DNA of 64,000 nt, taken from assembly GCF_001870225.1 (NCBI RefSeq), contig NZ_CP017675.1, positions 2,720,045 through 2,784,044 of the forward strand, in the 5' to 3' direction. A program made the position numbers and the translations under genes. The notes below the pieces were generated by a model. That model worked only from the letters and a program-made list of their open reading frames with translations. It made no database searches and was not told where the DNA came from. This stretch comes from Gloeomargarita lithophora Alchichica-D10. GTDB taxonomy: Bacteria; Cyanobacteriota; Cyanobacteriia; Gloeomargaritales; Gloeomargaritaceae. This document shows, piece by piece, positions 6,397-38,150 of the stretch; the stretch's first letter is position 1; the number at the start of each line of letters is the position of its first letter.

Positions 6397-6564
6397 TATA
6401 GCAATCCTAACTGAGTATGGCTACGCCACGCTAATGCCTACGGCACGCTATCGCTAACGCTATGAGAATAGCGGTCGCAGGGGTGCCACCCCCGTCCCTG
6501 GTTCTGTGGAATTTTTGTTCGTCAAATGGCTGCGCCACGCAAGCTAGCGGGTAGGATTGCTATA
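6397..6564. repeat. Family B miniature repeat, copy 1 (long form)
   Basis: The terminal inverted repeats TATAGCAATCCTA and TAGGATTGCTATA are perfect over 13 bases. The core AGCGGTCGCAGGGGTGCC followed by CTGGTTCTGTGGAATTTTTG matches the 19002 copy. This 168-base form also carries an extra internal block with the modules GGCTACGCCACGCTA and GCGCCACGCAAGC. TA at both ends suggests a TA target duplication of the IS630/Tc1 type; that is inference, as no transposase is nearby. Confidence 0.85.
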
Positions 6565-17180: not shown

Positions 17181-20100
17181 ATGCACGCCACCTCAGGCAC
17201 TATATCCGGGCGTATTTTAGGCACTTTGGGTTTGGGTTCAGCACTGATAAGTCTGGGGATTGCCCCACCCGTGCTTGCCCAAATCACCCCAGGCGGGAGT
17301 GGCACGGTCGTCAACCAAAATGGTCAGCAATTTAACATCACCGGCGGCACCCAGGCCGGACGCAATTTATTTCATACGTTTCAACAATTTGGCCTCACCC
17401 AGGGGCAGGTTGCCAGCTTTTTTAGCAATCCCGCAATGATTAACATCCTGGCGCGGGTGAATGGGGGTTCAGCGTCCTATATCAATGGGTTAATTCAGGT
17501 ATTGGGAGGCAATAGCAATTTATATTTAATGAATCCGGCGGGAATTGTCTTTGGGCCAAATGCTTCTTTGAATGTACCCGCCGCTTTTACGGCGACGACT
17601 GCGGATAGAATCATGTTTCCAGGCGGCAGTTTCAATGCCTATGGTAATAATGACTATAGCAAATTGGCGGGAGAACCCATTGGGTTTGCGTTTGATCGCA
17701 AGGAACCGGCGGCAATTATTAACGAGGGAAAGTTAGTGGTTAATCCCGGTCAAAGCGTGAGTTTAATCGCCGGTCAAGTAATCAATACAGGCACGATCCA
17801 GACACCGGGGGGAAATATCACCATCGCAGCCGTACCGGGGGAAAATTTGGTGCGTTTGTCCCAGGCTGGACAATTATTAAGTTTAGAATTTAACCCCCAA
17901 CAGGCGGCGAGTATAGCCGATGCGGAAGGCAATATCCCGGTGACTCGTTTGCCAGAATTGTTAACCGGCGGTGGGGTGGAAAGTATCACTGAAAATGCTA
18001 ACGGCACGGTCACGGTAGCGGGTTCTGATTTGCAAATTCCCGTATCATCAGGGACGGCGATTGTCTCAGGAACTTTGGATGTGTCTAGTAGTAATAGCAC
18101 CGGGGGTAATGTCGGTGTTTTTGGGAGCAAAATTGCTGTCGTGAACGGAGAATTGAATGCTTCAGGGTACACCGGCGGCGGGACAATTTTGGTAGGGGGA
18201 GAATTGCAAGGAAAAGGCTCAGTTCCCAATGCAGAATATACGTTTATTAGTAGCGATTCTCAACTATTGGCCGATGCGATCAATACTGGGGATGGGGGCA
18301 GGGTAATTGTGTGGGCGGACAAGGCGACCCAATTTTGGGGAACCATCAGTGCCAAGGGTGGCGAAGTATCGGGTAATGGCGGTTTTGTGGAAGTTTCGGG
18401 GAAGGAAAGTCTGAATTTTCAAGGTGAAGTAGATACCTCGGCACCCCAGGGGAAAGCAGGAACTTTATTGCTTGATCCTGAGAATATTATTGTGGGCGAC
18501 GACACTGATGATGATAGCCAGCTAGGTGACAATCAAATTCTATTTAATGATAGCCCTGGGGCGACTTTTAAGATTTCTACTACTAAATTAAGCAATCAAC
18601 TGGAAACAGGCACGGTCATTTTACAAGCGACCAATAATGTAATTTTTGATGTGGATTTTAACTACACAGGTGTTAATCCAACCATGCTCATTATTGAAGC
18701 GGGTAACAATATAAGCACCCAAGCGATTACGACAAATTTTTACGAGATCCGATTGGATTTCACAGCGGGGAATACGATTACCATTGGCGGCAATATCAAC
18801 ACAGGTAGGGACAATCTTACTTTCCAGGCAAACGGAAACATAACGACAGCCGATATAAACACCTCATCAGGTTTTGGAAGTGCCGGTTCCGTTCAAATGA
18901 CCAGTAATAATGGCAGCATTACAACCGGGTCTATTAATGCCCAGGGTTTTGATGATGGGGGAAATGTCAGTATCACCGCAGGAAGCAATGTTGAAGTGTC
19001 CTATAGCAATCCTAATTGGGTTTAGAATAGCGGTCGCAGGGGCACCGCCCCCGCCCTTGGTTCTGTGGAATTTCTGTTCGTAAATCGTGTCATATTGCTA
19101 TATGTGGATGCCAGAAGCATTAATCAAACAGGTGGAACTGTTAATATCAATTCCGGCAGTGAAGTCAGATTGACTGGTGTTTTTAGTACTTGTAGCCTAT
19201 GTTCACCTGATACCAGCATCGCTACTTCTGGAGACATTTCTGGGTCAATTACCATCACCCACGGGGGGAATGAAATCGTCCCCTTTATTGTCGGTGATGC
19301 TAATACCAACGGCAGTGAAGGTATTTTAACGACAGGTGGTACTTCTATTAGCCCAACCAACGAATTTTTAGAATCTACCATAATAGGTAATATCAGTATT
19401 CTCACCGCTTCCATTGGTGATCCGATCGCACCTCCCCCACTAGAAACTTCATCAATTTCTGAGCCTGCTCCTGCTTTATCAACTCAATCTGATAACGTCA
19501 ATGAAATTCTCTTTGCCACTATTCCCCCGGTGATGAACATCAGTAATCCCGCCAACCTGACCAGTGATGCGCCCCGGGATACAGTTTTGGATACGATTTC
19601 TCTTGACCGATCCAGCATTTTAAGTGGTTTACCGAGAGACCCTGCACAAGTATTGTCCTTTGATCTGTCTTTGGCCAATTTGTTTGCCCGTTATTTAGAT
19701 GCCCAACCCATCAATTCTTTTAACACCGTTGAAGAGATTCAGATTGCCCTGGCGAGTGTTGCCGAAAAAACGGGTACTCGTCCGGCGATTGTTTACCTAA
19801 TTTCCGACAAAGAACAGTTAGGGATCGTGGTGATTCCGCCGGGTAAACCCCAGGGCATTGCCCAAGGTCAAGGCATCAAAATTGCCAGTACCCAGCCGGA
19901 ACAGTTAATCACCAATATACCCATTGCCAGTGCGCCCATATTTCGGAGTGTTCCTGAGGCCAAAGCTGACATTTTGCAAGCCACAGCACGAGAATTTTTG
20001 AATGCGATTAAAGAACCTCGCCAACGGAGTAGCAATAATTATCAACAAGCGGGTAAGCAACTCTATGATTGGCTCATCGCCCCCGTGGAAGCGGAACTAA

Positions 20101-20921
20101 AAGCCCAAGGCATTGATACGATTATGTTTATCCCGGATGAAGGCTTGCGAACGTTACCTTTTGGGGCTTTGTGGGATGGGGAGCAATTCCTGATAGAAAA
20201 ATTTAATTTGGGTCAGATTCCCAGTGTGAATTTAGTGAATTTTGAATATCAGTCAGTACAAGGGGTAACTTTGTTGGCGATGGGGGCTTCAGAATTTAAG
20301 AATCAAGAACCTCTCAAAGGGGTGGCGATTGAATTGGCGACAATTACCCAAGAGTGGGGTGGAAAAGCCCTGTTGAATGAGAAATTTACGGTAAATAATT
20401 TGACCCGTGAGCGAGAACAAAATGGATTTGTATTGCTCCATTTAGCTACCCATGCAGAATTCCGTCCCAGCACATTAAAAGATGCCTACATTGAATTTTG
20501 GAATGAGCAATTAACCCTGGATCAGGTGCGGACTTTGCCCCTGAGGAATCCGCCGGTGGAATTGATGGTGTTGAGTGCCTGTCGTACCGCCGTGGGTGAT
20601 CCCTACAGTGAGTTGGGGTTTGCCGGTCTGGCGGTGGCTTCCGGGGTGAAATCGGCTCTGGCGAGTTCCTGGTATGTGAGCGATGTGGGCACCCTGGCGC
20701 TGATGACGGAGTTTTATGGGCAGTTGCAATCGGCGGCAATCAAGGCGCAGGGACTACGGCAGGCGCAATTACAGATGATCCGGGGGCAAGTGCGTTTGGA
20801 GCGTGACCAAATTCTCCGGCCAGAGCGAGACCCCTTGCCCTCCCCGGAACCCGGATTTCAGGCCGACCTGAGCCATCCCTACTACTGGGCAGGGTTTACC
20901 TTGATTGGTAGCCCGTGGTAG
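17181..20921 (+). pseudogene. Filamentous-hemagglutinin/CHAT exoprotein, interrupted by a miniature repeat
   Basis: The gene reads in one frame from 17181 to 20921 except for a TAG at 19023-19025 brought in by a family B repeat at 19002-19102. The ATG at 17181 follows GGGAG and starts a signal peptide ending ..PPVLAQ. A two-partner-secretion (FhaB-type) domain follows, with NPAGIVFGPNA near residue 116, then a beta-helix region. After the insertion, the C-terminal part is a CHAT peptidase domain with the catalytic pair His (LATHAEF, codon 20451-20453) and Cys (LSACRTA, codon 20580-20582). The insertion adds 99 bases (33 codons) plus a TA duplication, so the downstream frame is kept. The N-terminal half (17181-19025, 614 residues) could still be made and secreted; the CHAT part could only come from readthrough or reinitiation. 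Confidence 0.85.
19002..19102. repeat. Family B miniature repeat, copy 2, inside the CHAT gene
   Basis: The terminal repeats TATAGCAAT and ATTGCTATA are perfect, with TA at both edges. The core AGCGGTCGCAGGGGCACCG and CTTGGTTCTGTGGAATTTC is shared with the 6397 and 38052 copies. Without the duplicated TA it is 99 bases, a multiple of three. It brings a TAG in the host frame, and on the far side the same host frame resumes. Confidence 0.9.
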
Positions 20922-38011: not shown

Positions 38012-38051
38012 GTTTACTCAGAGTTAAAATACCTGTAAAACCTTGCCCGTG

Positions 38052-38150
38052 TAGCAATCCTATTCAAATTACAATTTAGCGGTCGCAGGGGTTTCCCCCC
38101 GCACTTGGTTCTCCAAAATATCTATTCGCCCATCGAGTGGGATTGCTATA
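38052..38150. repeat. Family B miniature repeat, copy 4
   Basis: The ends TAGCAATCCTATTC and GTGGGATTGCTATA are imperfect inverted repeats. The core AGCGGTCGCAGGGGTTTCC and CTTGGTTCTCCAAAATATC matches the other family B copies. Length is 99 bases, like the copy in the CHAT gene. Confidence 0.83.

What the first reader, a model, noticed from the sequence alone, without database searches (positions are those of the whole stretch)
19002..19102. In-frame miniature repeat disrupts a hemagglutinin-CHAT exoprotein gene
The 101-base element has perfect TATAGCAAT / ATTGCTATA ends with TA at both sides. Minus the TA duplication its length is 99 bases, so the host frame resumes exactly after it. Only a TAG inside the element (19023-19025) splits the secretion-domain half from the CHAT peptidase half. 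Such a multiple-of-three element could act as a removable stop or, with suppression, as a linker.
Basis: seen in the sequence. Interest (0 to 1): 0.6.

Follow-up and report, generated by a model that had tools for sequence, protein, structure and literature searches.

The report
Recent MITE insertion splits exoprotein gene
A 101-base mobile DNA fragment, one of dozens of near-identical copies in this cyanobacterial genome, recently jumped into a gene for a large secreted protein and cut it in two with a stop codon; that the reading frame lines up again afterwards follows from the fragment's standard length and is not evidence of a switch.

Summary
At 19002-19102 lies a 101-bp element with perfect TATAGCAAT/ATTGCTATA ends and a TA duplication. 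It adds 99 bp, and its TAG (19023-19025) splits a TPS-secretion/CHAT gene whose frame resumes behind it. The genome carries 58 intact-ended copies; 54 are exactly 101 bp, and 7, this one included, are identical. The nearest homologue (Gloeomargaritales VI4D9) is uninterrupted there.

The element is an IS630/Tc1-mariner-type MITE. One IS630-like sequence with the same ends is in the genome (L083), though its first catalytic Asp appears to be Asn. Insertion sites follow (C/A)TA(G/T).

In-frame resumption is a family property (97 bp + TA), shared by intergenic copies. In this subfamily all six frames contain a stop, so it cannot act as a linker without suppression. By analogy with ISY100, cut-and-paste removal would leave a +4 footprint and shift the frame. 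The natural stop of the same frame is also TAG. The CHAT half shows no accelerated change, as expected for a recent break. Verdict: ordinary insertional inactivation. The same family sits open and in frame in a BstYI-like restriction enzyme gene elsewhere (L059).

The parts
19002..19102 (+). MITE copy (IS630/Tc1-mariner type): TA duplication + 97-bp core + TA
   Evidence: 6 identical copies elsewhere in the genome; 58 intact-ended copies
19002..19003 (.). left copy of the TA target-site duplication
   Evidence: sequence; homologue VI4D9 has a single uninterrupted ...EYIDARS... here
19101..19102 (.). right copy of the TA target-site duplication
   Evidence: sequence
19002..19010 (+). left terminal inverted repeat TATAGCAAT (outer TA = duplication)
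19094..19102 (-). right terminal inverted repeat ATTGCTATA
19023..19025 (+). TAG stop inside the element, in the host frame
17181..19025 (+). 5' part of the host gene: signal-peptide-like start + TPS secretion domain, ends at the element's TAG
   Evidence: Pfam PF05860; start ATG 17181 with AGGGAGA upstream
19026..20921 (+). 3' part of the host gene, open in the same frame; CHAT domain with HLATH and SACRT motifs intact; natural stop TAG
   Evidence: Pfam PF12770
6397..6564 (+). second copy of the family in the window, 168 bp, with extra GCTACGCCACGC-like sequence inside; between ORFs
38050..38150 (+). third copy of the family in the window, 101 bp, one decayed end (TGTAGCAAT); between ORFs

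Best explanation
The 101-bp sequence is a non-autonomous miniature transposon (MITE) of IS630/Tc1-mariner type. It inserted recently at a (C/A)TA(G/T) site in a gene for a two-partner-secreted exoprotein with a C-terminal CHAT protease-like domain, duplicating TA and adding 99 bp. Translation from the normal start should end at the element's TAG. That leaves an exportable N-terminal fragment without the CHAT domain, so the gene is most likely inactivated. The frame resumes because the family's core is 97 bp and the duplication adds 2. Shown: element, duplication, family, uninterrupted homologue, stop, lack of decay. Inferred: loss of function, mobilisation in trans by an IS630 transposase.
For: There are 58 intact-ended copies, 54 of them 101 bp, in bursts of 20, 7, 5 and 4 identical copies. 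TA is duplicated, with flanking preference C/A at -1 (57/58) and G/T at +1 (55/58). An IS630-like sequence with TATAGCAATCCTA ends, 1151 bp, HTH + DDE_3, lies in the same genome. The homologue in VI4D9 is uninterrupted, with GGNVTLTAGKDIKAEYIDARS aligning across the junction. Relatives VI4D9 (G002), G004 and G005 carry the family too. Other copies split other genes the same way: cas3 (L011), a GST-like gene (L016), a DuOB gene (L029), another repeat-rich exoprotein-like ORF (L002). All six frames of this subfamily hold a stop. The relative-rate test shows no acceleration of the CHAT half (28 vs 33, 27 vs 36, 27 vs 35 unique changes, window gene vs VI4D9, three outgroups).
Against: No expression data. 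The CHAT half is still an open frame of more than 600 codons with its motifs intact, which a functional split would also give. The one IS with matching ends has Asn where other IS630 transposases have the first catalytic Asp, so the enzyme that mobilised the MITE is not identified. The VI4D9 homologue is not in the same gene neighbourhood and has extra repeat units next to the site, so it is a homologue and not a proven allelic empty site.
Confidence: 0.88

Rival explanations
1. Removable stop: the element excises and restores the gene, an on/off switch.
For: The insertion is a multiple of three with a clean TA duplication, so exact removal would restore the frame. The family was recently active (identical copies).
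Against: Length is fixed in intergenic copies too. ISY100, the studied IS630/Tc1-mariner element of cyanobacteria, leaves TATATA on rejoining of the donor (PMC2170065), a +4 footprint that shifts the frame. The only IS with matching ends seems to lack a catalytic Asp. No excised state was seen.
Confidence: 0.03
2. Translated linker: the TAG is suppressed and the element supplies 33 residues joining the TPS and CHAT parts.
For: The frame is otherwise open across the element. In another gene (L059, BstYI-like) an older subfamily copy is open and in frame.
Against: The natural stop of this gene is also TAG, and 10 of 43 larger window ORFs end in TAG, so general amber suppression is unlikely. The two most copied subfamilies have a stop in all six frames.
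Confidence: 0.03
3. Functional split: the CHAT half is translated on its own (for example from GTG 19065) and works as a separate protein.
For: An ORF of 618 codons with the CHAT motifs intact and no accelerated change.
Against: No Shine-Dalgarno-like sequence before GTG 19065 or before the first in-frame ATG (19533). It would lack a signal peptide. Insertion is too recent for intactness to be informative.
Confidence: 0.06
4. Assembly or base-calling error at the TAG.
For: None found.
Against: The same TAG is in all 7 identical copies, and in the 20-copy subfamily at the same element position.
Confidence: 0.005

Closest known systems
IS630/Tc1-mariner MITEs and ISY100 of Synechocystis
   Same: TA duplication, short terminal inverted repeats, IS630-type relative in the same genome; ISY100 inserts at TA by cut and paste (PMC2170065)
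   Different: Ends are TATAGCAAT(CCTA), the core is a fixed 97 bp, and its G+C-rich centre has no match in the IS; transposition was not tested
Cyanobacterial MITEs (Nezha; MITEs in the Anabaena mcy cluster)
   Same: Multi-copy miniature elements that inactivate genes, reviewed in PMC10969869
   Different: No sequence comparison with Nezha or the Anabaena MITEs was made, so relatedness is open
Rickettsia palindromic elements (RPE)
   Same: Small palindromic repeats found in frame in genes (PMC10969869)
   Different: RPEs keep an open frame that fuses with the host ORF; this subfamily is closed in all six frames. Only the older copy at L059 resembles an RPE in effect

Membership tests
IS630/Tc1-mariner-type MITE | terminal inverted repeats with TA target-site duplication | tested here: met
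   58 copies with perfect 9-bp ends; TA both sides; homologue uninterrupted
IS630/Tc1-mariner-type MITE | short, no transposase gene of its own, multi-copy | tested here: met
   101 bp, 58 intact-ended copies, no frame open through the two most copied subfamilies
IS630/Tc1-mariner-type MITE | autonomous partner IS with matching ends | tested here: inconclusive
   L083:1371-2521 has TATAGCAATCCTA ends, HTH and DDE_3, but Asn in place of the first catalytic Asp; no similarity to the MITE beyond about 26 bp of the ends
IS630/Tc1-mariner-type MITE | transposition in trans by that transposase | not testable with these tools
   needs an experiment
RPE-like protein-coding repeat | open frame kept across the element in host genes | tested here: not met
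   this subfamily: stops in all six frames; the exception L059 belongs to another subfamily
TPS exoprotein with CHAT domain | TPS secretion domain and CHAT domain in one gene | tested here: met
   PF05860 and PF12770 on the two parts; single 1,294-codon frame in VI4D9; two TpsB-type (ShlB) genes elsewhere in the genome

The most novel reading that the evidence does not exclude
The family occasionally acts as a coding insert. In L059 an older subfamily copy lies open and in frame in a BstYI-like restriction endonuclease next to its methyltransferase gene, adding 33 residues. In the window gene a low level of TAG readthrough could give a full-length exoprotein carrying the same kind of insert.
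Probability: 0.04. Interest if true: 0.5.

Novelty: new member of a known kind. Interest (0 to 1): 0.2.

Why it matters
It documents a recently active, length-constant MITE family in Gloeomargaritales and shows that it interrupts accessory genes (exoproteins, cas3, restriction genes). It also shows that in-frame resumption after a 99-bp MITE is a by-product of element length and not evidence of a switch.

Tried and rejected
Rfam: no RNA family matches the element. RNA folding of the element is only slightly better than shuffles (z -1.68), so no RNA-element claim. Gene conversion as the origin of the two elements at one site in tandem paralogues (L034/L035) was considered: 18 of 101 mismatches and opposite orientation against about 94% identical flanks make two independent insertions likelier. 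Literature searches for a description of this family in Gloeomargarita found none in the held library. PDB search of the IS transposase gave nothing useful.

Full report
Observation. The 101-bp element at 19002-19102 is as described: ends TATAGCAAT/ATTGCTATA, TA on both sides, a TAG at 19023-19025 in the host frame, and the same frame open behind it. The N half carries a TPS secretion domain and the C half a CHAT domain; the CHAT motifs HLATH and SACRT are intact.

The element is a repeat. The genome (3,049,282 bp, one contig; the size fits Gloeomargarita lithophora, an inference; the nearest relative is named Gloeomargaritales cyanobacterium VI4D9) holds 6 further identical copies and 58 copies with perfect ends, against 0 for the reversed pattern. 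Of these 54 are exactly 101 bp, 3 are 116 and 1 is 92. They include bursts of 20, 7, 5 and 4 identical copies with different flanks, so transposition was recent. In a sample of 116 genomes of the class, good full-length matches are confined to the genus (G000, G002, G004, G005); other hits are short. G002 (VI4D9) has 108 copies, G004 21, G005 11.

Insertion. The closest homologue, in VI4D9 (79-81% identical over the compared N part, 71% over the C part), is one 1,294-codon frame. Its GGNVTLTAGKDIKAEYIDARS aligns with the window's GGNVSITAGSNVEVSY / YVDARS on the two sides of the element, which fits a 99-bp insertion with TA duplication. It has extra repeat units next to this point and different neighbour genes, so it is not strictly an allelic empty site.

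Type. TA duplication, the target preference C/A-TA-G/T and an IS630-like sequence with TATAGCAATCCTA ends (L083:1371-2521; HTH orfA, DDE_3 orfB in a second frame) place it with IS630/Tc1-mariner MITEs. The IS aligns as Asn where other IS630 transposases have the first catalytic Asp, so it may be inactive; the enzyme behind the bursts is not identified.

Why the frame resumes. Core 97 plus 2 gives 99 for nearly every copy, wherever it lies. A one-in-three coincidence of length therefore applies to the whole family. In this subfamily and in the 20-copy subfamily every one of the six frames has a stop. About a dozen copies have same-frame open stretches of 60 codons or more on both sides (in L035 and L037 withheld bases count as open), among them cas3 (L011), a GST-like gene (L016) and a DuOB gene split at profile positions 49/55 (L029). 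These look like interrupted accessory genes.

Removable stop or linker. ISY100 excision cuts two bases inside the 5' ends and rejoined donors read TATATA (PMC2170065); the same here would add 4 bases and shift the frame (inference by analogy). Suppression is unlikely, since this gene's natural stop and those of 10 of 43 larger window ORFs are TAG. Starts behind the TAG lack Shine-Dalgarno-like sequence. The CHAT half shows no excess of changes against VI4D9 with three outgroups, so the break is recent or without effect on the rate so far.

What is known. MITE inactivation of genes in cyanobacteria and in-frame RPE insertions in Rickettsia are reviewed in PMC10969869. This is a new family, or an undescribed one as far as the held library shows, of a known kind.

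Noticed in passing
L059:1258-1935 (element 1501-1601): A copy of an older subfamily lies open and in frame inside a BstYI/BglII-like restriction endonuclease gene next to a DNA methyltransferase-like ORF, adding 33 residues between parts that align to BstYI.
   Followed up: partly
L034 and L035, element at 1501-1601 in each: Tandem paralogues with about 94% identical flanks carry elements of different subfamilies, in opposite orientation, at the same TA: likely two independent insertions.
   Followed up: partly
L008:1210-1601: Four copies in a head-to-tail array with a step of 97 bp, core joined to core without an extra TA; a similar partial tandem lies at genome position 336224.
   Followed up: no
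L083:1371-2521: IS630-like element with the same ends, orfA and orfB in two overlapping frames; first catalytic Asp appears replaced by Asn.
   Followed up: partly
window 6397-6564: A 168-bp member of the family with extra GCTACGCCACGC-like sequence inserted in both arms.
   Followed up: no
L011: cas3 is split by a copy of the same family, which may have disabled a CRISPR-Cas system in this genome.
   Followed up: no
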